This document shows positions 1-22,509 of a DNA stretch of 22,509 nucleotides, one piece after another (position 1 is the first letter of the stretch; every line of letters begins with the position of its first letter). A program made the translations under genes and the position numbers. The DNA is from Biscogniauxia marginata (Eukaryota; Ascomycota; Sordariomycetes; Xylariales; Xylariaceae), in NCBI GenBank assembly GCA_022695795.1, contig MU404261.1, positions 1 through 22,509 on the forward strand. Reading direction: 5' to 3'. The notes under the pieces are model-generated. The model worked only from the letters and a program-made list of their open reading frames with translations. It was not told the DNA's origin and ran no database searches.

Positions 1-93
<93 letters not shown>
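1..93. repeat. (ATA)n microsatellite
   Basis: About 31 uninterrupted ATA triplets begin at the first base of the window. The true length may be greater, because the window starts inside the repeat; this could be a contig end. Confidence 0.97.
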
Positions 94-95
<2 letters not shown>

Positions 96-2528: not shown

Positions 2529-2537
2529 TAATATTAC
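2529..2537 (+). promoter_or_regulatory. TAATATTAC nonanucleotide, outer junction of copy L (left)
   Basis: TAATATTAC directly precedes the element body. The same 9-mer, allowing R at position 5, sits at the other end (7147-7155) and at both ends of copy R. In geminivirus-type Rep systems the enzyme nicks within this 9-mer at TAATATT/AC. A simple 9-bp target duplication would be expected to differ between independent insertions, but here it is the same in both. Confidence 0.85.
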
Positions 2538-2538
2538 A

Positions 2539-2549
2539 GCTATGGTGTT
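2539..2549 (+). promoter_or_regulatory. origin half-stem, left end of copy L, with GGTGT repeats
   Basis: GCTATGGTGTT is complementary to 7127-7137 with one G-T wobble. In copy R the same half-stem reads GCCATGGTGTT. It continues into a tandem GGTGTTGGTGTT (2544-2555), which resembles the directly repeated Rep-binding iterons beside geminivirus-type origins. The iteron role is an inference. Confidence 0.7.
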
Positions 2550-2555
2550 GGTGTT

Positions 2556-2837
2556 TGGCTTCTCTACACTAAAATCTGAGTGATCTCACTAATCAATCGC
2601 TCAGTATCAAGGGCCGCCTCGTTTATTTTAGAGTCCCCCCCCACCTTTTTTGGGGTGCACATTTGTGCGTGGCGGTTAGGGCCGTTTCGGGCCGCTTACG
2701 CGGATGCGGTATTGTTTTTTATTAGTTACGCGGTAACGAACTATAGTTCTATTTACGGCACGGATGTGGTTTACGCGGTTTATGTTTTATCGGGGTTATT
2801 TAGTTTTATAGCGATACGTTACGCTTTCTTTATATAG
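2556..2837 (+). pseudogene. conserved coding-like start region of the Rep element, plus-strand side
   Basis: About 60 codons read in the same frame in both copies: FFGVHICAWRLGPF... here and YFGVHVCAWRLRPL... in copy R, sharing AVYVL near the end. Most differences are RIP-type or keep similar residues, which suggests that the frame was once translated. No reliable ATG is visible in copy L, and the frame is shifted near 2575-2640 relative to copy R, where a run of eight C occurs (2633-2641). The protein family is not recognised. It may be an upstream exon of the frame at 3600-4854 or a separate small gene. Confidence 0.4.
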
Positions 2838-3600
2838 TTTATTTACTTTTAAATATAATAGTTTTTTTTGTTTTTTTTGTCCGGCCCTGTTTATTTATTA
2901 ATTATTTTTTATATATATTATTTATACGGTGGGTCCGCGTAAATTCTTGCCGTTTATTTAGTTTTATATATTTAGCTTTTTCGTATATGATTAATAATTA
3001 ATCGTTTTCGTATTAATACTTATTATGTTTTCGGATATTATTAATTCCCGAGCTTATTAGTTTTATATATATATATATATATTTAATAATTATTTTCTTT
3101 TTTACTTATAATTTAATTATTATTATTTTCGTTTTTATTTATATTAATAAGTAATATACTTCATTTTATATTTATTTTAATATCACGTTTTTCGTTTTTT
3201 ATGTTATTTATATTATTTTCGTTTCTTTTTTTATTAAAATGGCGGGTTTTAATAATTATTATTAATAGTGTTAAGTTCTTTTTCGCGTTTATCATATTGT
3301 CGCAAACCCCTCGTGTCTTACTTATATTATAGCTTTTATCTGGCTTAATTAAATATATATAAAGGCTTTCGACCAAGATATCGGCGTTTTGAGTATCGTC
3401 GTTATTCACGGCCTTAAGCGTTATACGGCTTAATTCGATACACGGGTTATTAGCGCCGATATTACCGGCGTTATTAAGTTTAAAATTACGCGTCTTATTA
3501 AGGGTAAGGGTAACGTGTCATATTAGGATTACCCCTTAATTACCTCTTTAAAAAACCGTTCGTATTATTTTATTAATATAGGTTAAGTTGATATCGATTT
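2838..3600. other. AT-rich interior of copy L with a segment absent from copy R
   Basis: No convincing gene. About 0.42 kb (roughly 3060-3484, including an AT dinucleotide run at 3065-3081) is missing from copy R, where the flanks meet at about 19770-19777. The short TTATTA at both sides suggests a deletion in copy R or an insertion here. An 82-codon open stretch on the minus strand (3161-3409) lies wholly within this segment and has no support as a gene. Confidence 0.55.
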
Positions 3601-4854
3601 TAATTTGCGGTTTTTAAGTAATAACTTTTTAAGGTTTATCGATCCTTTAATAAAGAGTTCGTATTCTTAGTAGCTTACTTAAATATGCCGTTATTATTTT
3701 TCTTAGTAACGTCGTGTTTATCCGCTATCGCGACCGGCAACCCCGGCTCGCCTCGCTAGGTTAAAGCGTTCTCGTTTTATACTTTAATTTCTGACTACCT
3801 TTATTATTATTAACGCGGTTAAGGTTTAAAAGCGGCAATGCTTTATAAATTTAATTAAAGCCGACGGCGTCATTTTTAACTTAATAACGCTAAGTAAAAC
3901 TTCGCTTAATATATATAATTATTAAACCGGCGTCGGAAAAATAATAAAATAAAAATAATTAAAAATATTAATAATATTTTTATTAGTTATAATATATATA
4001 TTAAGAATAACAATATAAGATTTTTATTACTTAGGATTAATTTTCTTATAAGTGTTTATCGTAATAATAACGAGGTTTTTTTTCGAGGCTTAAATATCTT
4101 GATAAAACTTTATATGTCGAGGTTTTATAATATACGTATTTTAGCTTAGTGAAGCACTACGCCGCGAACTTATTTTATTTTTAGCGTGTTCGAGGTTAAT
4201 AATTAGCGTGTTATAAAGGTAATTAGTACTAGGTTTTTAGGTGCGGGGTTTAGTCGAGTCGGGAATACGTCGTTTAGGATTAGTTCGTTTACGATTACGA
4301 CGGGGTTTTTTCTTTTTTTGGAAGATAATACTTAGCTTTTTTATTTTCGTTTTATAAATAAGAAGTAGCGGCTTAATATTATTTTAAATTAATATCGTTA
4401 TTTTCGCGTTAAGTTTTAATTATAGTTTTTCCTTTTTTTTGTTTAGTTATTTATTAATCGAGTTATAAAGATTTATAATAATAAAGTGAATAAATTTTAT
4501 TAAATTAAGAAAGAAAGTATTATAAAATATAATCTTTACGTTATAATATTAATTTATATACTTTTTTTTATTGTTAAGAAGTTTGTTCGTAAAGGGGTAA
4601 ATAGTGTTACGGCTAAGATGAAAAGGATGGATATAAATGAGGAGCCTGGACCCTCGAAGCGGAAAGCGGATAAAGAGATTTCGGATAGTGAGGATGAGAG
4701 GTCTAAGCGTAAGCGCATGGCTATCTTTATTTTTCGGTCTGGAATGCGGCTTTTATTTAGGATTTCGGAGATTATTAGTGGTTTAATTAGTAATGACCCT
4801 AGTGTTACTTTTCTCGCTTTAAAGGTTCGGGATTTATTTATTTCCGTTTATTAA
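3600..4854 (+). pseudogene. long broken ORF of the Rep element, unknown function, NLS-like C-terminus
   Basis: One frame runs from at least 3703 (possible ATG 3685) to the TAA at 4852-4854, more than 380 codons. Its internal stops are almost all TAA or TAG, as expected from RIP on Gln and Trp codons. Copy R keeps the same frame on its minus strand over much of this length, with matching peptides such as ...GNTSFRI..SFT.T.GFF.FLEDNT.... The C-terminal part (4618 on) contains EPGPSKRKADKEISDSEDE followed by KRKR, a bipartite nuclear-localisation-like cluster around an acidic stretch. It converges on the rep pseudogene. By position it could correspond to the second gene of an ambisense Rep replicon (capsid or accessory), but no capsid, transposase or nuclease motif was recognised. 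Confidence 0.6.
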
Positions 4855-5029
4855 GTTTAAAAGAATGCTATATTTATAAATAAGATTAAGACTAAGGAAT
4901 AACCGGTTTTTTATAGCATTTTTTTTAATAAAAATAATAATTAATTTTTTGGGTTTTTAAATTTTTAATTTATTTTATATAATAAAAACTTTAATTCTTT
5001 ATATCTCGAAGTTGTTATTAGTTTTTATC

Positions 5030-5530
5030 TCTTTAATGAATTAATTAAGGGCTTTCGTTTAACTATTTAAAGTGCGGGGTTTTTCTCGTTTGATGAAAAG
5101 TGAAGATTTAATCTTTACGAATATATAATTTTTTTTTCAATTATTTCATGTTTATTTTAAGGTAGTTTTTAAGATCTTGGTTAAAGACGTAAATATATAA
5201 TAAAGCTTAGTTTATAAAACTTACAAGGCGCATATATTTGTTTATTACTAAAAAAGCGACTTAATATCCTAATATTTACTTATAAAACTAGTTAAGTCCC
5301 TTACTATTTAAAGGAATATTATTTATAACGATATAATTAACGTTTTCGCTTATTAACGCGGCGTTTTATACCTTAGCTATATAATAATAAAGCCCGAGAA
5401 ATCAAGCTTATATTGTCTTAAAAAAACGAGTTTCTTTATAAATATATAATATACGGGGTTATTTTAAATAAATATTAATATTATATTTTTTATAAAACCA
5501 TAAGTAGGTCTTTACCGATTCGCTAAAACG
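5030..5530 (-). pseudogene. Rep-like helicase region, copy L, degraded
   Basis: A minus-strand frame conserved with copy R (17755-18250) starts near a P-loop-like S-E-S-V-K-T-Y (5504-5524). After about 60 codons it reaches N-Y-I-V-I-N-N-I-P (5313-5339), a run of hydrophobic residues followed by two polar residues, as in a Walker B strand. Then come G-L-N and further matching residues. Placement after the HUH domain fits the SF3 helicase of CRESS-DNA Reps, which unwinds DNA during rolling-circle replication. The P-loop is shorter than the usual GxxxxGK[ST], and the acidic Walker B residues are Asn here, possibly by G-to-A change. The helicase call rests mainly on order and is moderate at best. 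Confidence 0.45.
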
Positions 5531-5549
5531 TATCTTTTTAAATGTTATA

Positions 5550-5940
5550 TATAACCCCCCCCTTATAAGGGGGGAGACCTTTCAAGAAATAAGGATAAAA
5601 GGGGGACCCGAAATAAAAAGAAAAATTATATAAATCATTATAAAATAAACGTTTATATAAAGCTAAAAACCTTTAGGTGAATACTTAACAAGTAAAAAGA
5701 ACTTCTTATTCCGGGTTAAAACGCTCTCGAGGGGGGGGTGATTACCTACGAAAGTGCTAAGGAGACTTATAGCGTTTACTTTGTATTAGGGGGTTTCGGG
5801 GGTACCCCACCCTCGTGCCTCGGGGGGGCCCCCCCCCTACACCCCCTAAAACGCTTGGTAGGCTTACGAGTCCTCACAACCCATGCGTAATTACCCCTCG
5901 CCGACGGGCAAGATAATTACGAAAAGTGTAATGTCGAAAA
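5550..5940. other. GC-rich linker with poly-G/C tracts, palindromes and an inverted segment
   Basis: This block separates the HUH part from the helicase part of the Rep frame and could be an intron or a low-complexity linker. It holds a near-perfect palindrome of C and G runs around TTATAA (about 5558-5576) and runs of seven or more G or C near 5733 and 5822-5837. A conserved GC segment ends near 5915 and matches 17401-17425. It has unusually many CC/GG steps, which RIP does not attack, so GC survived here. A 31-bp stretch (about 5577-5607) is missing in copy R. The 60-bp segment 5788-5847 is inverted relative to copy R. Confidence 0.6.
5788..5847. repeat. 60-bp GC-rich segment, inverted between element copies
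   Basis: The segment starts AGGGGGTTTCGGGGG and ends with CACCCCCT, so its ends are short inverted repeats. It contains the palindromes GGGGGTACCCC and GGGGGGGCCCCCCC. Copy R (17466-17525) carries it in the same plus-strand orientation although the rest of the element is inverted. Flanks on both sides stay homologous (AAAACGC, TTTACTTT). Confidence 0.85.
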
Positions 5941-6980
5941 GTAAAAAAGTACTTACTCGGTTTATTAAAGAGATTCTCCTTTTTCTATTCCCGGAGTTTT
6001 TTCGGTAGGTCCTAGATTTCGTTAAAGTCCGGTAAAATGTATTCCCGGATTATGGGTCTTTATTTTTAGTTCGTATATAAGCTTATTGCTATGAAATACA
6101 GGATTAAATCCCGTGAGACATATTCTTCGAATCTTTTAAAGAATTCTTTCTTTATTTAAAGGGTAGGGGCCTTAAACCAGAAGTCTACCTTAACTTCTTT
6201 TTGGTATCCACGTGGCTACGTTATATTTCTATTAATGTATACAGACCTTTTTTTATGTAGATATTTCTAGGCAGTAATCCTATTTTTGGTAAAACCGATG
6301 TTTAGGTGGAAACGCTTAATATCGAAATGGCGAGCGTTACGAATCTACTTTTTTTTAAATTATTCGCTGAGTACGTAATAATAAGGTGTATTATCTTTAT
6401 ATTATTCGCAACAGGCGTAAAAATATTGGAATCTAAATACTTTAATTTCTTCGAGGAATTTCTCTAGTGGGAGGGTGCACTTTGGGTATATAAAAAAGAC
6501 GAATTTCGCGTTAAGTTTAAATCGACCTAGTTTAAGAGGGTTTTAGAAGTCGATCTTTAAAAATCAATTCCGTTAGGTTTCGATAAAGGCTTTATAAGAG
6601 GTCGTTCCCGCTGTTAATACAAGTCGGGGTAGTGATAGGGTTATTAATACGACTATGCCTTTTATAAGATAGCTACGCACGAACAGGGATAGAGAGGGGG
6701 GGGTGTCTACGCGATAACGAGGGCCTTCTAAACCTAAAATTAGGCTCGAAAAACGTTTATTAAAGAGTTCTTGTTTATATACCTAGTTAAATACGCTACT
6801 AAGGCTAAAAAGTGTACTAATATCGGGTACTACGAAGTCTACTAGTGAGCCCGGCAAACCATCGCGAAAAGGGGGGCTTAAATCTCCGCGACGGTCCTCT
6901 TCTCCGCTCTCTAGTTCGAAAAGTTAAGTTAGGCCTATTCGTACTAAAGAAACGTGTAATTGGTTAATAGTAAGGCGCAT
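5876..6980 (-). pseudogene. rep: geminivirus/genomovirus-type Rep, HUH endonuclease part, RIP-broken (copy L)
   Basis: A minus-strand frame from ATG 6978-6980 continues for about 365 codons. Motif I reads F-F-I-Y-P-K-C (6477-6497), close to the geminivirus-type motif I. Thirty-eight codons later the place of the metal-binding HUH motif reads Y-Y-Y followed by V-L (6375-6383), so the histidines are absent. An F-D-I and F-H-L-N-I stretch follows, then motif III K-Y-L-H-K (6252-6266), with its tyrosine 78 codons after motif I. Copy R shows the same order and spacing with no indel. The family nicks the origin 9-mer, stays covalently bound through the motif III tyrosine, and starts rolling-circle replication in the nucleus. 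An N-terminal extension of about 160 residues precedes motif I, which is unusual. TAA, TAG and one TGA break the frame, so the gene is dead. Confidence 0.72.
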
Positions 6981-7110
6981 TGTTAAATAATGTGGTTACT
7001 AGGACGGTAATTGCTGCTTAAACGAAGTATATAAAGGTGTATATGCTAATTAATAGTGTTTAATAATGCTTTAATATTTGTGAAGTATTCGCTGTGGGAT
7101 TTGTTTTTTT

Positions 7111-7117
7111 CTTTATA
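7111..7117 (-). promoter_or_regulatory. TATA-like box for rep (copy L)
   Basis: TATAAAG on the minus strand lies about 130 bp upstream of the candidate rep ATG and next to the origin half-stem, the usual place of a Rep promoter in ambisense single-stranded DNA replicons. In copy R the equivalent is TATATAG near 16218. Confidence 0.4.
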
Positions 7118-7126
7118 CTTTTTCTT

Positions 7127-7137
7127 AACACCATGGC
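7127..7137 (+). promoter_or_regulatory. origin half-stem, right end of copy L
   Basis: AACACCATGGC pairs with 2539-2549 across the element. It lies 9 bp inside the nonanucleotide at 7147, so in a circle formed by joining the ends the 9-mer would sit in a loop of about 19 nt. Confidence 0.7.
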
Positions 7138-7146
7138 GAATACTTT

Positions 7147-7155
7147 TAATGTTAC
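7147..7155 (+). promoter_or_regulatory. TAATGTTAC nonanucleotide, outer junction of copy L (right)
   Basis: It matches TAATRTTAC. The G at position 5 may be ancestral, with TAATATTAC at the other junctions derived by RIP, or the reverse. It is followed by the resumed hAT element 1 sequence. Confidence 0.8.
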
Positions 7156-12000: not shown

Positions 12001-12199
12001 TTAATAAAACCGCGATAATTAATCGTTTTTGTTATTTCGTTAATACTAATAATAATAAGGTCGTTTTTAACCAAAACTATATTATATTAAGAATTTTTAT
12101 TTTCGAGATAATTTTTTAATTCTTTAAAAACCTTTTTTATAATTTAAATGACGATATTTAGTATTAATTTAAAGCTTTTTACGAAGTTTTTTTTTTTTA
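9061..12199. other. 3.1-kb AT-rich RIP-affected region, unidentified remnants
   Basis: No intact gene. Islands with more CG steps (about 9185-9410 and 10310-10430) may be remains of transposon coding sequence. A plus-strand frame at about 10080-10380 reads ...FLDDENVYIINKSYKF... with few stops. A minus-strand frame at about 11480-12070, open over 11838-12074, reads ...NYAVASRKLGFIN.... Neither was assigned to a family, and both may be chance in such biased DNA. The 3' part of the hAT gene should lie in the first kilobase if it was not lost. Confidence 0.5.
10969..11216. repeat. diverged tandem duplication, period about 177 bp
   Basis: A block at 10969-11040 (TATAATATAAATAATATCTA, then AGTG and TTAATTTTCTT) recurs at about 11144-11216 (TATAATATAAGTGACATTTA, then AGTGCCGTGTTAATTTTTC). 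Most differences are C/T or G/A. The spacers also share TTATTTATTTAAATA-like sequence. Confidence 0.5.
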
Positions 12200-12201
12200 T
12201 A

Positions 12202-14282
12202 ACGTACCACATAAGCGAGTAGACGAAACAAGCTCGCGAACGAAATTTTATAGTTATTATATTTTTAATCATTAAAAATCATTTGCGCTATATCGAAATT
12301 AATTAATAATTATTATTATTCGAACCGTCTTATTTAGCTTTATACTTTAAAAACCGAATATCTTTTTTATACTAAGTATTCGGTTTTTTAAAGCGTAATT
12401 TATATTACTTAGTTTATTACATTTTCCGAGTTAAAGCCTTTTAAAATTAATTATAACTTCTCGAAATCTAAATTACTAAATACATTTTTATTCGTTATAT
12501 AAATACGCGTATTATAACTAAATTAGTTATATATGTTATATCGTTTCTGCTTAGTTATTACTCTTTTTCGAGGCCTCCCTTTTTTATATTAAGTAATTTT
12601 CTTATTTATAATTTTTTTTTTTAGTTTTACGTCGCTTATTAAAAATGTGGTTTATCTCTTAAAAACGAGTAATTTTGTTTCGTAATAAAAACATTTTATA
12701 TATTAATATTAAAGTAGTTTTTATAAATTAATTATAAGTATTTATAATATTTATAAGAGAACTTTTTTAGTGTTTTTTAACTTTATTTATAATATAATTA
12801 AATTACAAAAACATTTTACGAGTTGTTATTAATTTTTTAATTTTTTAAAATATTTAATTTATATTAAAATCGAGAAAAGGTATATACGCTTTTTATATAA
12901 AAAGTAATATAATAATAACCTTTTTTAAATTAAAAAAAAACTAATTTAATTACGTAAAATTTAGTTTATACATTTAAGATAATTATTATAATAATAAAAG
13001 TTTTTATAAAGTTAATTAAAAAGTTTTTTTTGTAATATAAGTATAATAGCGGTTTATTAAACCTTATAAATAATTATTATATATTTATTTTAAGATATTA
13101 AAATATACGAAATCGAGAGGTTAAAGTTTATATAACGAATAATTAAGTATATAAAATATAATAATATTTTTTATAATAATAATTTTCGTAATTATTTAAA
13201 ATTAAAAGGCGCGTAGTTTTTTTATTCTTTTTTTATATATTTATAAAAGTGCTTTATAAAGTTTATATTAAGCTTATTTGTAACTTAGTTATTATTTAAT
13301 ATCGTAATTTTATTTTTTTAATAATAATAAGTTATCGCGATATTACGAAACGAGGTGTTTTTTTAATTAAAATGATATATAATAATAAAAAGTAATTAGT
13401 AATATTTATAATTTAAATAATTATAACATATTTTTAATTACTTTGTTAAACTTATTATAATTATTATATCGTTTTATACTTATTATTATTATATTAATTT
13501 TAATAATTATATTAATTATATATTTTTTCTTTTTAAATATTATATTTTATAATTATATTACGTATTAATTTATATTATTTTTAATATATATTTAAGTTTT
13601 TATAAAAAGCTTTTTAATAATTAATTTGTTTATTTAAACGCGTTCGAAGGGTTTTTTGTCGCCGTATAAAATTAAAGGTTTAGTTTTATTCGACGCAATT
13701 CGCATCGTAGTCGCGTAATAAGATATTTGCTATCTCGGCAACGTAATAAAAATAAAGAGGAAATAACCGATTATTTAAATTAATAATACGTTAAATAATT
13801 ATAACTTCTTCGTGAAATGTAAATTTTCGGAAATTTAATATAATAATTAATCGCGTAAATATGTTTTTAAATCGTCATCGTAATATAATGTTAAAAACTA
13901 GTATTTAAATAGCGCTATTTATAAGTAATAACACGACTAATTCGAGTTTTAAATAATATTTTCAGTTGTTAAATTAAGTTAATTAATAAAAAAAATATAA
14001 AAAATATAAATTAAATATATAATTATAATTTTACGCGTTTTAAAGATAATAATAAATATATTAATTTTTAGTTAAGTAATATAAATCACGCTTTAAAAAA
14101 CTAAATACTTAGTATAAAAAAGGTATTCGGTTTTTAAAGTATAAAGTTAAATAAGACGGTTTAAATGATAATAAATATTAATTAATTTCGATGCGGCGTA
14201 AATAATTTTTAATGGTTAAAAGTGTAATAACTATAAAATTTCGTCCGCGAGCTTGTTTCGTTTACTCGCTTGTGTGGTACGT
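12202..14282. mobile_element. Tc1/mariner-like element with 211-bp terminal inverted repeats
   Basis: The ends are ACGTACCACATAAGCGAGT... (12202) and its complement ...CTTGTGTGGTACGT (to 14282), each flanked by TA (12200-12201, 14283-14284), the target duplication of Tc1/mariner and pogo/Fot1 elements. The length of 2081 bp also fits that group. The inverted repeats reach about 211 bp on each side (12202-12412, 14072-14282) and differ mainly by RIP-type changes. Each arm holds an internal hairpin, AAAACCGAATA with TATTCGGTTTT (12350-12387 on the left). The 1.66-kb centre is AT-rich and no transposase motif could be read. The termini share ACGT...CATAAGCGAGT with the MITE at 14528. Confidence 0.8.
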
Positions 14283-14527
14283 TATGTCATTTTTTAAAAT
14301 TTATTTTTTCTTTAGCGATATAAATATATCGTTTAATAATAAATATAGGTTTAATAATAGTTTTTTCGTTATTAAAACTTATATAAAATTAATAAGTATA
14401 AAATATAACTTTTTCTTTTTTTAATTTCGAAATACTAGCGAAAAAGTTTTAATTAAAAATAAAAAATTTTATTTATTTTAAAATAATAAGTCGTTTCGAT
14501 TAAATATATTAACTTAACTTATATATA

Positions 14528-14967
14528 ACGTGTCTCATAAGCGAGTGAGCCACACAAGCGAGTGGGCCACTTGATTTCCCATACAAAATCGACTTTTTCA
14601 AAAATTCATAACTTTACGCGTAAAAATCGTAAAAATCCTAGACCTTCTTTTTTTAGTTATATAATTATTTATTTTAATTAAAAGTAAAATCGAAAAAATT
14701 AATTTTAAAAAACGCGAAAAGAAAACGCGAAAAAACTAAAATCAAAACAAAACGCACGGACCTTTTTACGTATTTCTTTATACATTTCACTTTTATTTTT
14801 TTCGATTTTACTTTTAATTAAAATAAATAATTATATAACTAAAAAAAGAAGGTCTAGGATTTTTACGATTTTTACGCGTAAAGTTATGAATTTTTGAAAA
14901 AGTCGATTTTGTATGGGAAATCAAGTGGCCCACTCGCTTGTGTGGCTCACTCGCTTATGAGACACGT
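14528..14967. mobile_element. 440-bp foldback MITE with identical 171-bp arms
   Basis: The arms 14528-14698 and 14797-14967 are, as far as I can read by eye, exact reverse complements around a 98-bp centre. TA flanks both sides (14526-14527 and 14968-14969), placing it with Tc1/mariner or pogo-type elements. The tips start ACGTGTCTCATAAGCGAGTG, and two direct near-repeats AAGCGAGTGRGCCAC follow, typical of subterminal transposase sites. CpA and TpG are plentiful (CCACA, TCATAA, ATACAAAA), unlike all surroundings, so RIP has not touched it. Its tips resemble those of the 2081-bp neighbour, which may share or be related to its mobilising enzyme. No coding capacity. Confidence 0.93.
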
Positions 14968-14969
14968 TA

Positions 14970-16180
14970 TATAAAGTATATATTATATTTTAATATAAAT
15001 ATATAATAACTTGTAAAACCAGACCTTAACATGGTGTTTCTAAGCACCGAGTAATAAGTTTTTAATTAGTTTCCTTTTCGCACGGCTAGGGATAAGTACT
15101 TTATTTAGAACGATCCTCGCTTAAAGCGAAATTAAAACGTTATCGCTAAATTAATACGATCCCGCGATGCCGTCTCTTATTAAGTTATTAATAAGTTATA
15201 AATATACACGTCACAAAAAAGCTTCGAAATTATAATAATTAATTACTATAATTATTAAGTTTTTTAAATTTAAACTTATTAAAAATAATTACTTCGTTTT
15301 TAAACCCTTTTTATATTATTTAAATTTAATGTTTAATTATAATTATAACTTCGAATAATATATATTTAATAATATATTTATAACGAAAAATATATATATT
15401 TATTATTCGTTTAAGGAAATTTATATAAAATAAAGCCGTTTATATTATAATAAAGAATTAAAACTTAAATAGTTAAAATTAAATAATCGAGAAATTACGC
15501 TAAGCGATTATATATAGTTTTAACTCTTTAAACATATTTCACATACTACGATTTTATATCTTTATTTATTCCGGTTTTATTTTTATTTTTTATTTTATTT
15601 TTACCTTTTATTTTGTTTTTAATTCTTACTTTATTAATACTTATTTTCTTAATTATATTTATAATTACGATTACGATTAAGATTACGATTAGAAGTAGAA
15701 TTAAAATTATAATGCTTTATTTAACTTTTTATAAAACCCCCCCGAAAAATCTAGTATTATAATAACGAGGGTTAAAAAAATAACTATTTCTTATAAATAT
15801 AATTTAGCCGTTTTATCTTTATTATTATTTACTTTTAATTAACTTTTTAAATTATTAATATTATAACGCCTTATTTAAATTAAAAGTAGTTTATCATTTA
15901 GTTTTTATATATTTATTTACCTTTTTTTCGCTTAATTAAGTTTTATCGCGGTTAATATTTATTATTTAAAGTGATTATAAAGTCGATTAAGTCGACTTAT
16001 TATTTCTTTATTATATTTACGAGGTCGTAATAAAAATTAATAATTATTTAATATATAAAGGTTTTTATAAAAGTTATTATATTATATATAAAATCACGAG
16101 CTTTTAATTTACGTTTAAAGGCCTTAACGAAACGGTGTACGTCTAAATAGCCTTATATCGTAATTATTATTTAAAAATAA
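14970..16180. other. AT-rich flank with one RIP-poor island
   Basis: At about 15015-15185 CpA and TpG are retained (AACCAGACC, AACATGGTGTTTC, TTCGCACGG), suggesting either single-copy DNA or a late arrival. Its minus strand has a frame of some 60 codons with few stops but no recognised motif. A degenerate (GATTAC)n hexamer run lies at about 15663-15700. A plus-strand frame at 15740-15970 (PPEKSSIIITRVKK...) is unassigned. The rest is featureless. The end (16181) is the integration site of Rep element copy R. Confidence 0.5.
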
Positions 16181-16189
16181 GTAATATTA
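16181..16189 (-). promoter_or_regulatory. TAATATTAC nonanucleotide, Rep-side junction of copy R
   Basis: GTAATATTA on the plus strand is TAATATTAC on the element strand. It directly abuts the homology boundary with copy L. Confidence 0.85.
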
Positions 16190-16198
16190 AAAGTATTC

Positions 16199-16209
16199 GC
16201 CATGATGTT
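16199..16209 (+). promoter_or_regulatory. origin half-stem, Rep side of copy R
   Basis: GCCATGATGTT pairs with 20249-20259 (AACACCATGGC) with one mismatch or wobble. Compared with copy L the difference is a single RIP-type base. Confidence 0.7.
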
Positions 16210-16349
16210 GAAAAAAAGTATATAGAAAAAAACAAATCCTATAACGAATACTTTATAAATATTAAATCATTACTAAACACTACTAATTATTATATATACA
16301 CCTTTATATATTTCGTTTAAGTAATAATTATCGTCTTAATAACTATATT

Positions 16350-17460
16350 ATTTAATAATACGTTTTATTATTAATTAATTATACGCTTCCTTAGTACGAA
16401 TAAACCTAACTTAACTCTTTAAATTAAAGAGCGGAAAAGAGAACCGTCGCGGAGATTTAAGCCCCTTTTTTCGCGACGGTTCGCCGGGTTTATTAATAAA
16501 TTTCGTAATACTTGATATTAACACACTTTTTAGCTTTAATAATATATTTAACTAAATACATAAATAAGAACTTTTTAATAAACGTTTTTCGAGCTTAATT
16601 TTAGGCTTGGAAGGCCTTCGCCATCGCGTAAACACCCCCCCCTCTTTATCCCTATTTATACGTAACCGTCTTGTAAAAAGTATAGTTGTATTAATAACGA
16701 AAACGACTTTTTATAAAGCTTTTATCGAAACTTAACAGAATCGATCTTTAAAAATCGACTTTCAAAATCTTTTTAAATTAAGTTAATTTAAACTTAACAC
16801 GAAATCCGTTTTTTTTATATACCTAAAATATATCCTTTTATTAAAGGAATTTTTAAAAGAAATTAAAACCTTTAAATTTTAACATTTTTATGTTTATCGC
16901 GAATAATATAAAAATAATACACTTTATTATTACGTACTCGGCGAATAATTTATAAAAAAGTAAATTCGTAACGCCTGTTATTTCGATATTAAGCATTTTT
17001 ATTTAAATATTAGTTTTATTAAAAATAGAATTATTACTTAAAAATATTTATATAAAAAAGGATTTGTATATATCGATAAAGATATAACGTAGCTATGTAG
17101 ATATTAAAAAAAAGTTAAAATAGATTTTTAGTTTAAGGCTTTTACTTTTTAAATAAAAAAGGAATTCTTTAAGAGATTTAAAAAATGTGCTTTACGAGAT
17201 TTAATTTTACATTTTATAATAATAAGTTTATATGCGAATTAAAAATAAAGATTTATAATTTAAGAATACATTTTATTAAACTTTAACGAAATCTAGGACT
17301 TATTAAAAGAACTTCGGGAATAAAAAGAAGAAAATCTTTTTAATAAACTAAGTAAATATTTTTTTTACTTTTTGATATTACTTTTACTTTTCGTAATTAT
17401 CTTGCCCGTCGGCGAGGGGTAATTACGCACGGGTTATAAAAACTCGTAAGCCTACCAGGC
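16350..17460 (+). pseudogene. rep: geminivirus/genomovirus-type Rep, HUH part, RIP-broken (copy R)
   Basis: Colinear with the copy L pseudogene. Motif I reads F-F-I-Y-L-K (16811-16828), the HUH position reads Y-Y-Y-V-L (16925-16939), and the motif III region reads K-Y-L-Y-K (17042-17056). The spacings of 38 and 78 codons from motif I are the same as in copy L, with no indel. The codon corresponding to the copy L start ATG is ATA. Many TAA stops interrupt the frame. Where copy L has a TGA, copy R keeps CGA (Arg), so the copies carry independent lesions. The role would be origin nicking for rolling-circle replication. This copy is non-functional. Confidence 0.68.
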
Positions 17461-17465
17461 GTTTT

Positions 17466-17525
17466 AGGGGGTTTCGGGGGTACCCCACCCTCGTACCTCG
17501 GGGGGGCCCCCCCCTTACACCTCCC
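17466..17525. repeat. 60-bp GC-rich segment, opposite relative orientation to copy L
   Basis: It reads AGGGGGTTTCGGGGGTACCC... on the plus strand, as in copy L, although the surrounding element is reversed. Flanks are GTTTT on the left and GATATAAAGTAAACG on the right, homologous to the opposite flanks of copy L. Confidence 0.85.
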
Positions 17526-17754
17526 GATATAAAGTAAACGCTATAAATCTCCTCGACACTTCCATAAGTAATTACCCCCCCCCTCGAGGGCGCTTTAACT
17601 TGAAATAAGAAGTTCTTTTTACTCGCTAAGTGTTCGTTTAAAGGTTTTTAATTTTATATAAACGTTTATTTTATAATAATTTATATAACCTTCTTCCTCA
17701 TTTCGGGTTCCCCCCCTTATAAGGAGGGGGTTATATATAACATTTAAAAAAATA

Positions 17755-18250
17755 AGTTTTGGCGAATCGGTAGAAACCTACTCGCGGTTTTATAGAAAGT
17801 ATAGCGCTGACATTTACTTAAAACGACCCCATATATTATGTATTTATAGAAAAAGCCGTTTCTTTAAAATAATATAAACCCGATTTCTCGACTTTTATTA
17901 TTATACAATTAAGGTATAAAACGCCGCGTTAATAAATAAAAATATCGATTATATCGTTATAAATAATATCCCTTTAAATAGCAAGGGACTTAATTAGTTT
18001 TATAAATAAATATTAAGATGTTAAGTCGCTTTTTTAATAATAAATAAATATATACGCCTCGCAAGTTTTATAAACTAAGTCTTATTATATATTTATATTT
18101 TTAACCAGGATTCTAGGGATTACCCTGGAATAAACGTGAAATAGTTAAAAAAAAACTATATATTCGTAAAGATTAAATTTCCTTTTTTTATCAAATAAGA
18201 AAGACTTTGCACTTTAAATAATTAAACGAAAGCCTTTAACTAATTTATTA
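17755..18250 (+). pseudogene. Rep-like helicase region, copy R, degraded
   Basis: The frame reads G-E-S-V-E-T-Y (17761-17781), then ...RKYSADIYLKR..., then D-Y-I-V-I-N-N-I-P (17947-17973), a Walker-B-like strand with Asn where acidic residues are usual, and later ...NKYIRLASFIN.... Copy L gives the same peptides with RIP-type changes, so the frame was probably translated once. Position after the HUH domain supports the SF3 helicase of a CRESS Rep, but the P-loop is atypical. Confidence 0.45.
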
Positions 18251-18411
18251 AGGAGGTAAAAATTAATAGTAGTTTTAAAATATAAAGAATTAAAGTTTTT
18301 ATTATATAAAATAATTTAAAAATTAATTATTATTTTTATTAAAAAAATACTATAAAAAGATAGTTATTTTTTAGTCTTAATCTTATTTATAAATATAATA
18401 TTCTTTTAAAC

Positions 18412-19660
18412 CTAATAAATAGAAGTAAATAAATCCCGAACTTTTAAAGCGAAAAAAGCAACACTAGGATTATTACTAATTAAACCACTAGCAATCTCCG
18501 AAATCCTAAATAAAAACCGCATTTTAGACTAAAAGATGAAAGTAGTCGTGCGTTTACGCTTAGGCTTTTTATCCTTATTATCCGAAATCTCCTTATCCGC
18601 CTTCCGTTTTAAGGGTCCAGGCTTTTTATCTATATCCATCCTCTCTATTTTAACCACAACACTATTCACCCCTTTATAAATAAACTTCTTAGCAATAAAA
18701 AAAAGTACGTGAATTAACATTATAATATAAAGATTATACTTTATAATACTCTCCTTTTTAATCCGATAAAACTTATCCGCTTTATTATTATAAGCCTTTA
18801 TAACCCGATTAATAAATAACTAAAAAAAAATTATAACTAAAACTTAACGTGAAAATAATAATATTAATTTAAAATAATATTAAGCCGCTACTTTTTATCT
18901 ATAAAACGAAAATAAAAAAACTAGGTATTATCTTCCAAAAAAGGAAAAAACCCCGCCGTAACCGTAAACGAATTAATCCTAAACGACGTATTCCCGACCC
19001 GACTAAAACCCCGCACTTAAAAACCTAGTATTAACTACCTTTATAATACATCGATTATTAACCTTAAACACGTTAAAAACAAAATAAATTCGCGGCGCAA
19101 TGCTTTATTAAGCCAAAACACATATATTATAAAACCTCGACATATAAAGTTTTATCGAAATATTTAAACCTCGAAAAAAAACCTTGTTATTACTACGATA
19201 AACATTTATAAAAAATTTGATTTTAAATAATAAAAATTTTATATTATTATTTTTAACATATATATTATAATTAATAAAAACACCGTTAATATCTTTAATT
19301 ATTTTTACTTTGTTATTTTTTCGACGCCGAGTTAATAATTATATATATTAAATAAAGTTTCGTTTAGCGTTATTAAATCGGAAATAACGCTGTCGGCCTT
19401 AACTAAATTTATAAAGCATTACCGCCTCTAAACCTTAACCGCGTTAATAATAATAAAAATAGTTAAAAATTGAGGTACGAAACGAGAACGCCTTAACCTA
19501 GCAAAGCGAGCCAAGGTTACTAATTATAATAACAAACAAATACAACGCTACTAAGAAAAATAATAACGGCGTATTTAAGTAAATTACCGAGAATATAAAC
19601 TCTTTATTAAAAAATTAATAAATCCTAGAAAGTTACTACTTAAAAACCGCAAATTAAAAT
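18412..19660 (-). pseudogene. long broken ORF of the Rep element, copy R, unknown function
   Basis: Homologue of 3600-4854. The terminal stop is TAG (18412-18414) where copy L has TAA. The NLS-like part reads MDIDKKPGPLKRKADKEISD, then K-rich K-P-K-R-K-R (18560-18640). Upstream it matches copy L peptides such as VKAFSF, AMLYKF or VMLYKF, and RRRKNNK. One extra T in a T run near 19005 shifts the frame relative to copy L. It converges on rep. The family is not recognised. Confidence 0.55.
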
Positions 19661-20009
19661 CGATATTAACTTAACTCACGTTAATAAAATAATACGAATA
19701 ATTTCTTAAAAGGGTAATTAAAAGGTAATTCTAATATAACACGTTATTTTTACCCTTAATAAAACGCGTAATTAATAAGCTTAAAAATTAATAATATCTA
19801 AAAATATAATAAATATTAATACGAAAACGATTAATTATTAATTATATATAAAAAGGCCGGATATACGGAACTAAATAAATAGCAAGAGTTTATATAAACC
19901 TACCGTATAAATAATATATATAAAGGATAATTAATAAATAAATAAGGCCGAACGAAAAGAATAAAAATAATTTATATAAAGAAAATATAACGTATCGCTA
20001 TAAAACTAA

Positions 20010-20243
20010 ATAGCCTTAATAAAATACGAATAAAACATAAACCGCGTAAACAACGTCCGTGCCGTAAATAGGATTATAATCCGTCCTCGCGCAACCAATA
20101 AAAGACAATACCGCATCCGCGCAAGCGGCTCGAAGCGGCCTCAACCGCCACGCACAGACGTGCACTCCAAAATAAGCGGGTCCGCCCCTAGTCCTAAGCG
20201 ATTGATTAGTGAAATCACTTAGATTTTGGTGTAAAGAAGCCAA
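20010..20243 (-). pseudogene. conserved coding-like start region, copy R
   Basis: An open minus-strand stretch without stops, ...YFGVHVCAWRLRPLRAACADAV...IYGTDVVYAVYVL, in the same frame as 2640-2820 of copy L. It runs through the origin half-stem without an obvious ATG, so the true start may lie further in or the reading may come from a spliced exon. Confidence 0.4.
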
Positions 20244-20248
20244 ACACC

Positions 20249-20259
20249 AACACCATGGC
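20249..20259 (+). promoter_or_regulatory. origin half-stem and GGTGT repeats, far side of copy R
   Basis: AACACCATGGC on the plus strand. Just inside it CAAACACCAACACC (about 20241-20254) is the complement of the GGTGT tandem seen at the left end of copy L. Confidence 0.7.
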
Positions 20260-20260
20260 T

Positions 20261-20269
20261 GTAATATTA
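20261..20269 (-). promoter_or_regulatory. TAATATTAC nonanucleotide, far junction of copy R
   Basis: GTAATATTA on the plus strand. Together with 16181-16189 it brackets copy R exactly where similarity to copy L ends. Confidence 0.85.
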
Positions 20270-22412
20270 CTTTATTAAAGCTTATTTAAAATATTAATAT
20301 TAGCGTTTTAAACGTCGGGTATTAATAAATAAAATATATATTTATTATAATTTACGTATTATAAATTATTAACGTTAATTTAGTCTTTTTTCGTAATAAA
20401 AGCTTTATTTTCGATTAAAGTGTTATTTATTAGCTTGATTTTAAAGACGAATAATACGTTATAAGAGTTCTCGAAATTAAAGTTAAACGTAAAATTATTT
20501 ATAACTTTAATTAGTTTTATAATGTTTTTTTTAAAGTTAACTTACGCGAAATGGTAATTATATATAAGGTTATTAAAATCGAGTTTTATATTATTAATAA
20601 CGGGACTTATAAAATAACATATATATAAATTTAAGACGTTTAAATCGCGCGAAAGGTATTATTTTATTATTAATTTTATTATTATACTTTATTTTATTAT
20701 TATATATTTATCTTTATTTAGCTTTAAAATTATAAAAGTAAATATAATTAAAGTGCTTATTATCTTATTATTTTTTTAGTTAAATAAATATTAAATAATA
20801 TTCTTACTTTTATAAATATAATATATTTTTTTTGTAAAACTATATTCATTTTAATATAATAAAGTAATTAACATTAATTAATATTAAATATTAAACGATA
20901 AATAATAAATACATGACTTTTATCGTTCTAAACGAGGGGAAATCGCTATAAAAAATATATATATATTTAGGTTCGGCGAATTACCGCCCCTTTTAACTCA
21001 TAATCGTCGTCGTTTTTAACCTATACTTATTAAAAGTTTATATTATAATTAATACTTAAACGTATTTATTTAGGTGGTCGGCGACATCAATTAAAAAGCA
21101 AATTCTTTATTTAAAAAGCGAAATACCTTTTTTTAACTCTATATTACTTATGATATTTTTCGATATTATTAATACCTTAAGGTTTTAAATATTAATCGCT
21201 TAAATAAAGATATCGCTTTAAATATTAAAAATTCCGTTAATAACACTATAAAATAATACGTGTTATTAAGCGATTTAAATCGTAATTTATTATTTAGCTT
21301 TATTAAAATCCAACTAACGAGTTTAATAATAAAAATATATAATAAATAAACTATACGATCGAAAAACTTGAAAAAGCTTACTCGATAAAACTTATATTTA
21401 GAAAATTAAGATTAAAATGAAACTTAAAATATTACTTTTTTAATATTTTAAATTAATTTTAAAAAATTTCTAAAAATAAGCTTTTTTTAAGAATTTAAAT
21501 AGTCGATTTATAAGTAATACACTTTATTATATAATATTAAAATTATATTAATATAATCCTTAAAATATGAAGCTAAGAAACGATATATCCGCTTTATTAT
21601 AATCAAAAATTATAATTATATTATAAGTAATTAAAAAAATATATTTATAAATAATAATTATATGTTTCGTAACGAGCTTTTTTATATTATTACTCTTTTT
21701 TGCTAACATTTAAACTATTTTAATAATAAGCGTTATTATATCGATAACTAATAAGTGTTAAATTTTTCGATATATATATTATTTTTATCGTTTTAATAAA
21801 TAAATATATTAATTTTAAAAAGAGATATATTGTTATTATTACGATTATATATTAATTTTAATTTTAAGTTATTATTAGCGTTTTAAACTTTAATTAAAAT
21901 ACCATATTATAAGTTAAGATTAATAATATATTAAACTTTTTAAGTGCAAAAAGTATTAAATAATAAATTAATAATAATATTAATAATTAGAAATTTAATT
22001 TAATTTAATTAATATATTAAGTTTTAACTAATCAACCCTTGTTACTTTTAACAAGCGGCTTTTAAGTATTAAAAGGTTTAAATATTACGGGTTAATAGCT
22101 AGATTTCCTTTTTTTTTTTTCACTTTTAGTATTTTCGTCGATAAACCAAGAAATTAAGTATTACTTTATAAACCTCTTATATTAACGTGTTAATTATAAA
22201 ATAGAATTATAAGAGAAATAGTTCGAGTTACTTTGTAAACACTAAGTAATTTTATTATATATATTTAATAAAAAGTAAATAAATTACTTTAATAATAACA
22301 AAATAATAAATACCTTATTTATAATTATATTTAATTATATAAATATTTTAAATTATTATTTTAAATTATTAAAACTATTAAACTTAGTATTATTAAGTCG
22401 TAATAATAATTT
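20270..22412. other. 2.1-kb AT-rich RIP-affected flank, possible gene remnants
   Basis: No intact gene. A plus-strand frame at about 20378-20650 reads ...YVIRVLEIKVKRKIIYNF... with only TAA and TAG stops. Another at about 21000-21410 includes V-V-G-D-I-N (21074-21091) and YVLLSDLNRNLL. Both look like former coding sequence of an unknown repeat, possibly the target that copy R invaded, but I could not place them in a family. The remainder up to the terminal repeat is featureless AT-rich DNA. Confidence 0.4.
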
Positions 22413-22509
22413 ACTTATTTTATTATTTTATTATTTTATTATTTTATTATTTTATTATTTTATTATTTTATTATTTTATTATTTTATTATTTTATTATTT
22501 TATTATTTT
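22413..22509. repeat. (TATTTTAT)n octanucleotide repeat
   Basis: About 12 near-perfect TATTTTAT units run to the last base of the window, so the array is probably truncated and may mark an assembly break. Confidence 0.95.

What the first reader, a model, noticed from the sequence alone, without database searches (positions are those of the whole stretch)
2529..7155. Rep-encoding rolling-circle element bounded by TAATRTTAC in a fungal genome
Three independent signs coincide. (1) A minus-strand broken ORF has geminivirus-type Rep motif I (F-F-I-Y-P-K-C), a motif III-like K-Y-L-H-K, and a site at the HUH position. (2) The element ends exactly at TAATRTTAC, the 9-mer nicked by that Rep class. (3) 11-bp half-stems lie just inside the ends. 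At 4.6 kb, with a large unknown second ORF, it exceeds known geminiviruses and genomoviruses. It may be a new mobile element lineage or an endogenised relative of Geplafuvirales.
Basis: partly seen in the sequence, partly recalled or inferred. Interest (0 to 1): 0.95.

Follow-up and report, generated by a model that had tools for sequence, protein, structure and literature searches.

The report
Rep-bearing jumping element targeting origin sequence
A repeated 4.6-kb mobile element, apparently in a fungal genome, carries a damaged plant-virus-type replication gene and sits inside copies of the nine-letter sequence at which such viruses start replicating, which suggests that a virus-like replication start has become the way a transposon jumps.

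Summary
The window has two copies (A 2529-7155; B 16181-20269, inverted), and all five TAATRTTAC matches in 22.5 kb lie on their four ends. The 45.3-Mb assembly has at least 32 left-end and 28 right-end matches. Of those read, 24 of 28 left and 23 of 25 right ends show TAATRTTAY, with varied flanks. Eight unoccupied paralogues of two insertion sites carry one such 9-mer (or TAGTRTTAC) at the insertion point. One natural head-to-tail pair shares one TAATGTTAC; there the half-stems form a 12-bp hairpin with the 9-mer in its loop, like a geminivirus origin. The minus-strand gene matches Gemini_AL1 above cut-off in six copies, each match with stops inside. Main-group copies differ almost only by transitions (RIP-like), which suggests a burst followed by hypermutation. 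Most likely it is a rolling-circle transposon that inserts between TAATATT and AC of genomic 9-mers. A 9-bp target duplication and repeated integration of an episomal virus are not excluded. A literal HUH motif was not found in the two copies checked; the second gene is unidentified.

The parts
2529..7155 (+). Element copy A, nonanucleotide to nonanucleotide (4,627 bp)
   Evidence: ends and homology limits against copy B; matches in the assembly
16181..20269 (-). Element copy B, inverted, with an internal deletion of about 0.4 kb opposite A 3070-3480
2529..2537 (+). Left 9-mer TAATATTAC; proposed: first 7 nt from the target, AC from the element
   Evidence: assignment is inference
7147..7155 (+). 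Right 9-mer TAATGTTAC; proposed: TAATGTT from the element, AC from the target
   Evidence: assignment is inference
2539..2549 (+). Left half-stem (11 nt, one mismatch in this copy)
   Evidence: sequence; the homologous half-stems pair at the natural tandem junction of contig C127
7127..7137 (+). Right half-stem AACACCATGGC
   Evidence: sequence
2544..2555 (+). GGTGTTGGTGTT, two tandem GGTGT units, iteron-like (role recalled, not tested)
   Evidence: sequence; same units at the C127 junction
5060..6963 (-). Broken Rep gene (approximate limits, start codon not determined), beginning about 190 bp inside the right end and running away from it
   Evidence: stop-free pieces; PF00799 at 6249-6521; third-codon-position excess of transversions over 6000-6963. 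The part below about 5850 is assigned by eye only
6477..6497 (-). Rep motif I, FFIYPKC
6363..6401 (-). Motif II region, read PYYYV (no H-x-H in this copy)
6270..6344 (-). Piece with ARHFDIKRFHLNI, between motifs II and III
   Evidence: this piece alone hit no family; a longer stop-free piece of a C127 copy covering the same place matches PF00799 model positions 40-74, sub-cut-off
6252..6266 (-). Motif III-like KYLHK (Y-x-x-K, proposed catalytic tyrosine)
   Evidence: inside the PF00799 match
6542..6963 (-). About 145-aa stretch before motif I; in frame with motif I in one 177-aa open stretch of a C127 copy
3625..4851 (+). Second open region (pieces 3625-3756, 3919-4146, 4207-4332, 4504-4851, one frame), opposite strand to Rep; unknown protein
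   Evidence: no family above cut-off, one 49-aa relative
16787..16879 (+). Motif I piece of copy B (FFIYLKY); alone it hit no Pfam family

Best explanation
This is a rolling-circle transposon family built on a geminivirus-type replicon. Its Rep is proposed to nick single-stranded TAATRTT^AC in the loop of the origin hairpin, become covalently linked to the 5' AC end, and release one element length that starts with AC and ends with TAATGTT. The same enzyme then joins this strand into a genomic TAATATT^AC, so every insertion ends up flanked by the 9-mer: the left seven letters from the target, the right seven from the element. Head-to-tail copies arise by failed termination or by insertion into the resident right-end 9-mer, and there the origin hairpin is re-formed. 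The copies were then hypermutated (RIP-like) and the Rep frames examined are broken. Shown: Rep homology, the ends, the single 9-mer in unoccupied sites, the hairpin at the tandem junction, multi-copy spread with almost only transition differences in the main group. Inferred: nicking, the covalent linkage, the strand-transfer steps, and which letters come from target and element.
For: PF00799 over the cut-off at six element copies (best 3.9e-8, 38.5 bits), 0 of 14 control genomes. Separate stop-free pieces hit collinear model parts 1-30 and 40-74, each below the cut-off. A profile of five motif I pieces finds viral Rep domains as the first six of seven PDB hits (1l2m, E 0.0032). Ends: TAATRTTAY in 24 of 28 left and 23 of 25 right ends read, against 45 such sites in 79,233 bases of flank, 5.7e-4 per site. 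Two sites with both flanks known have 5 and 3 unoccupied paralogues, each with one 9-mer at the point (TAATATTAC 4, TAATATTAT 1, TAGTGTTAC 2, TAGTATTAC 1) and no other target duplication. Tandem junction with one 9-mer: 12-bp stem, 19-nt loop, -12.9 kcal/mol, z -5.45, 0 of 200 shuffles. The stem arms lie 1 nt and 9 nt from the 9-mer, asymmetric as in an origin. In 14 paired main-group copies the position-5 discordance is A left / G right in 6 and never G/A, and 3 pairs differ by a transversion, each with the odd letter on the left. Rep 6000-6963: 18 of 32 transversion columns at third codon positions, p 0.02 uncorrected, 14 overlapping intervals looked at. Rep lies left of the origin and runs away from it, as in geminiviruses (recalled).
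Against: The target/element assignment rests on few pairs: a two-sided sign test for 6 of 6 gives 0.03 (my arithmetic), the tandem junction is used in two of the pairs, and the older C89 copy is G/A. H-x-H of motif II reads Y-Y-Y in copy A and in the C127 piece. Single pieces stay below the Pfam cut-off, and copy B's motif I piece hit nothing. PF08283 (Gemini_AL1_M) gave nothing, nor did its controls; pieces of the presumed central and helicase parts hit no Pfam family. No circular form, transposition or polymorphism was observed. Only one tandem junction was found genome-wide. C34 matches its target family on the left only and C37 its family on the right only. C155 lacks the right 9-mer, and 4 of 28 left ends have a more changed 9-mer.
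Confidence: 0.7

Rival explanations
1. Repeatedly endogenised CRESS-DNA mycovirus: an episomal geminivirus/genomovirus-like virus replicated in the fungus and its Rep integrated it many times at genomic 9-mers; the element was a virus with a capsid, not a transposon.
For: Same Rep class, origin and Rep-leftward layout as geminiviruses (layout recalled); a second open region on the other strand in the place where such viruses carry the coat protein (recalled); no clear transposon-only gene.
Against: 4.6 kb is larger than single-component geminiviruses and genomoviruses (recalled); profiles of second-gene pieces find no capsid in PDB (no hit at E 10; 4 weak unrelated hits), and nine pieces reach no Pfam cut-off; no relative in viral contigs. 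These negatives are weak because the copies are hypermutated.
Confidence: 0.17
2. A cut-and-paste (DDE-type) transposon with a 9-bp target-site duplication and strict target preference for TAATRTTAC, which carries a captured Rep gene as cargo.
For: One 9-mer in unoccupied sites and two in occupied ones is also what a 9-bp duplication gives; the half-stems could be read as inverted repeats; Liu et al. report a Tuber element with Rep, transposase ORFs and 37-bp TIRs (PMC3198968, passages).
Against: Inverted repeat offset 1 against 9 nt from the two ends and only 12 bp long; the target preference equals the nick site of the encoded Rep class (recalled); left/right differences biased to one side in main-group pairs; no transposase family among the pieces tested.
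Confidence: 0.1
3. Coincidence of an AT-rich 9-mer with the ends of an ordinary repeat, and a spurious motif in a RIP-degraded frame.
For: TAATRTTAC is common in this DNA: 5 found, 3.95 expected in the window.
Against: All window matches sit on element ends; dozens of ends agree genome-wide; Gemini_AL1 over cut-off in six copies.
Confidence: 0.01

Closest known systems
Geminivirus replicon (Geminiviridae; Rep/AC1 and its TAATATT^AC stem-loop origin; virus facts recalled)
   Same: Gemini_AL1 catalytic domain, FFIYPKC and YxxK motifs, nonanucleotide in the loop of a stem at the joined ends, Rep leftward from the origin
   Different: Chromosomal and multi-copy, 4.6 kb, about 145 residues before motif I, no coat protein identified, inserts at genomic 9-mers, RIP-like damage
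Geminivirus-like transposon of Tuber melanosporum (Liu et al. 2011, PMC3198968; passages read)
   Same: Geminivirus-type Rep in a multi-copy element of an ascomycete genome, Rep interrupted, no obvious target duplication reported
   Different: Tuber element has 37-bp TIRs and two transposase ORFs; 'nonanucleotide' occurs 0 times in that paper's main text; here no long TIRs, ends at TAATRTTAC, and an origin-like hairpin at the junction
Replitrons (one passage of a review, PMC10741241; original paper not held)
   Same: HUH-type endonuclease, short direct terminal repeats (5-11 bp there, 9 bp here)
   Different: Review gives green algae and seedless land plants as hosts, an endonuclease distantly related to Helitrons, TSDs of 2-8 bp; here a Gemini_AL1 Rep, no duplication beyond the 9-mer, fixed 9-mer target
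Helitrons / IS91 / IS200-IS605 (recalled; Helitron insertion between A and T also)
   Same: Proposed single-strand transfer into a short fixed target without duplication
   Different: Different Rep families, hairpin inside an end rather than split over both ends, no geminivirus-type domain (recalled)

Membership tests
Geminivirus-type (Gemini_AL1) Rep | Gemini_AL1 catalytic domain above the curated cut-off | tested here: met
   six copies over 24 bits in the six-frame search; single stop-free pieces stay below it
Geminivirus-type (Gemini_AL1) Rep | Motif II H-x-H (metal site) | tested here: not met
   reads Y-Y-Y in copy A and in the C127 piece; both copies are hypermutated; other copies not checked for it
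Geminivirus-type (Gemini_AL1) Rep | Motif III with catalytic tyrosine Y-x-x-K | tested here: met
   KYLHK at 6252-6266(-)
Geminivirus-type (Gemini_AL1) Rep | Central domain PF08283 and helicase part | tested here: inconclusive
   PF08283 nothing in the assembly, but nothing rang in controls either; pieces no Pfam hit
Geminiviridae / Genomoviridae genome | Nonanucleotide in the loop of a stem at the joined ends | tested here: met
   C127 tandem junction
Geminiviridae / Genomoviridae genome | Coat protein gene | tested here: inconclusive
   second-gene pieces match no PDB or Pfam coat protein; heavily mutated
Geminiviridae / Genomoviridae genome | Circular ssDNA virion genome | not testable with these tools
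   no reads or particles
Rolling-circle (HUH) transposon | Multi-copy, dispersed, defined ends, precise unoccupied sites | tested here: met
Rolling-circle (HUH) transposon | No target duplication; insertion at the nick | tested here: inconclusive
   one 9-mer in empty, two in filled sites; side bias favours it
Tuber-type geminivirus-like transposon | 37-bp TIRs and transposase ORFs | tested here: not met
   only a 12-bp offset inverted repeat; no transposase family in the 18 pieces scanned
Replitron | Replitron-type HUH protein | not tested
   no Replitron profile at hand; original paper not held

The most novel reading that the evidence does not exclude
A new class of eukaryotic transposon in which a CRESS/geminivirus replication origin is split over the two termini and doubles as the integration target: the element moves by Rep-catalysed strand transfer between its own TAATRTT^AC and any genomic TAATRTT^AC, so that every insertion, and every head-to-tail pair, regenerates a nick site.
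Probability: 0.5. Interest if true: 0.9.

Novelty: new variant of a known kind. Interest (0 to 1): 0.82.

Why it matters
How CRESS-DNA virus replicons and HUH transposons turn into one another is an open question, argued largely from trees of Rep (recalled). Here is a multi-copy genomic family whose ends, target sites and natural tandem junction together look like the record of strand transfer by a geminivirus-type Rep, so that the link between replication origin and transposon end becomes directly testable. It could also explain how geminivirus-type Rep genes spread in fungal genomes, and the known Tuber element could be re-examined for the same ends.

Tried and rejected
Chance ends: rejected. 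Homology searches elsewhere: 177-aa Rep piece against 5.8 billion proteins, none at E <= 1 of 79 candidates; second-gene profile A2 none of 7,104 candidates; profile A1 one 49-aa protein among the 7,980 candidates scored; viral contigs with A3, A2, A1 and with the junction pattern, none. The queries are hypermutated, so these negatives are weak. A coat protein for the second gene was suspected from a short stretch and not supported. PHROGs gave only weak matches (best E 0.043). No Rfam family and no tRNA in the window. A Walker A motif was looked for by eye and not found. A first listing of ends was wrong for minus-strand loci and is replaced. Rows dropped: three left-end and three right-end copies that align poorly (44.9-58.8% identity to copy A) were left out. 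Literature: ten searches; in the rows listed (several lists were cut) only Liu et al. 2011 was direct prior art. The library is open-access only and the Replitron primary paper was not held, so priority elsewhere (Repbase, subscription papers) is not excluded.
Full report
What is there. The window is contig C207 of an unnamed 45.3-Mb assembly of 229 contigs. The flanks are 16-18% G+C, copy A 31% and copy B 27%, with a richer Rep half in A. A self-comparison shows a second, inverted copy. Alignment puts copy A at 2529-7155 and copy B at 16181-20269. Homology begins at the T of the left TAATATTAC and ends within three bases of the right one. All five TAATRTTAC matches of the window fall on these four ends; about four would be expected by chance somewhere.

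Copies in the assembly. A 272-base left-end query has 32 matches and a 259-base right-end query 28, both lower bounds. I read 28 of the 32 left ends (two matches start inside, two were not cut out) and 25 of the 28 right ends (three matches stop short). Left ends: TAATATTAC 14, TAATGTTAC 4, TAATATTAT 4, TAATGTTAT 2, others 4 (TAATTTTAC, TAATAATAC, TAATAATAT, TAAAATTAC). Right ends: TAATATTAC 10, TAATGTTAC 8, TAATGTTAT 3, TAATATTAT 2, others 2 (TAATAATAT; and C155, where the 9-mer is missing). In 79,233 bases of flanking DNA the exact 9-mer occurs 5 times and TAATRTTAY 45 times on the same strand. Copies with both ends found close together span about 3.5-4.6 kb; four pairs of ends lie 6.5-27 kb apart and may be interrupted copies or different copies.

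Empty sites. The two-copy array on C127 has flanks that are both repeats. The right flank has 74 matches, of which 15 were cut out. Five loci hold the two flanks side by side without the element, with one 9-mer at the point: TAATATTAC three times, TAATATTAT once, TAGTGTTAC once. Three others (L067, L073, L077) have the right flank but a different left flank. For C88, three loci are unoccupied, with TAATATTAC, TAGTGTTAC and TAGTATTAC; the likeness of their left flanks to that of C88 was judged by eye. For C34 the left flank has 40 matches (itself included); in 15 that I cut out, 13 have TAATRTTAY at the point and 2 a more changed form, but the right flank of C34 does not match theirs; C37 matches its family on the right only. 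No target duplication beyond the 9-mer is seen at C127 and C88.

Origin-like junction. On C127 two copies lie head to tail with one shared TAATGTTAC. The 81 bases around it fold into a 12-bp stem with a 19-nt loop that holds the 9-mer (-12.9 kcal/mol, z -5.45, 0 of 200 shuffles as good). A genome-wide pattern search with up to two mismatches found only this junction. The two copies differ by 261 transitions, no transversion and no gap over 1,772 left-end bases, and by 306, 0 and 0 over 1,755 right-end bases. Tandem GGTGT units lie next to the stem; that such units serve as Rep-binding iterons is recalled from geminiviruses and was not tested.

Rep. Read as separate stop-free pieces, the minus strand of copy A gives FFIYPKC in a piece that matches Gemini_AL1 model positions 1-30 (E 0.008), the only one of nine pieces to do so; in a C127 copy a 177-aa piece matches positions 1-28 (E 0.016) and a 52-aa piece positions 40-74 (E 0.0044), two of five pieces scanned. 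Each of these is below the 24-bit cut-off. The tool's six-frame family search, which reads through stops, puts six copies over the cut-off (24.7-38.5 bits) with two to five stops inside each match, and 0 of 14 control genomes. A profile of five motif I pieces finds entries named Rep or replication-associated protein as the first six of seven hits in PDB, best 1l2m at E 0.0032; the single 177-aa piece gives the same six first of seven at E 0.043-1.7. That these are geminivirus proteins is recalled. KYLHK supplies a YxxK motif. Motif II reads Y-Y-Y in copy A and in the C127 piece, so the literal HUH claim fails there. PF08283 gave nothing, without a working control. About 145 residues precede the Gemini_AL1 match in the same open stretch of a C127 copy. 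Over 6000-6963, 18 of 32 transversion columns are third codon positions of the Rep frame, 8 second, 6 first (p 0.02, uncorrected, one of 14 overlapping intervals looked at), which suggests past selection on the protein; its sub-intervals alone are not significant, and the 900-1290 element interval gave p 0.049.

Hypermutation and age. Eighteen of the 28 left-end copies form a main group (fewer than 20 transversions from copy A); they differ by a median 17.1% transitions and 0.75% transversions, and C80 and C127-1 by 220 transitions, no transversion and no gap over 1,772 bases. The other ten are more diverged, with transversions as well. C-to-T type changes occur in all dinucleotide contexts, so the pattern is RIP-like but not CpA-only. 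The likely history (inference) is a burst of near-identical copies followed by hypermutation, on top of older copies.

Insertion at the nick or duplication. Under a 9-bp duplication, left and right 9-mers start identical. In 14 paired main-group copies, position 5 differs as A left and G right in six, never the reverse; three pairs (C37, C184, C105) differ by a transversion, each with the odd letter on the left, where 0.1-0.9 are expected for per-site rates of 0.001-0.0075 (chance 0.0003-0.07). The shared C127 junction serves in two of these pairs. Three older pairs are mixed: C89 is G/A, C26 has its odd letter left, C172 right. I read this as favouring a target-derived left TAATATT and an element-derived right TAATGTT, but not as proof.

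Second gene. Pieces at 3625-4851 on the plus strand share one frame and are conserved between copies. They match no Pfam family above cut-off (DUF6019 is sub-threshold) and nothing convincing in PDB.

Comparison. Liu et al. [quoted passage not shown] the word nonanucleotide does not occur in its main text. Replitrons (one passage of a review) share short direct terminal repeats and an HUH enzyme but differ in enzyme family, hosts and target duplication. I therefore file the Rep as geminivirus-type, with motif II unmet in the copies checked, and the element as a new variant of HUH rolling-circle transposon. It works like a geminivirus replicon, but it is not shown to be a member of Geminiviridae or Genomoviridae.

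Noticed in passing
window 14522-14973: Inverted repeat with 181-nt arms, 99% complementary, 90 nt apart, strikingly well preserved in hypermutated DNA.
   Followed up: no
window 12199-12411 and 14073-14285: Inverted pair of 213 nt, 91% complementary, probably another repeat family.
   Followed up: no
window 5783-5846 and 17461-17524: G/C-run-rich tract, 94% identical between the two places (listed as a direct repeat although the copies are inverted: the tract is nearly self-complementary) while the copies are about 80% alike around it.
   Followed up: no
loci L088-L102: A repeat family with 40 matches scored carries TAATRTTAY at the same place in 13 of 15 slices: a ready-made target for this element.
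   Followed up: partly
C37:354992-359614 and C34:286450-291072: Copies of which only one flank matches a target family, perhaps through recombination between copies.
   Followed up: no
P0001: 49-aa protein from a 744-base ENA contig resembles the second gene; organism unknown.
   Followed up: no
window 1-94 and 22410-22509: The contig begins with (ATA)n and ends with an 8-base tandem array, likely assembly break points.
   Followed up: no
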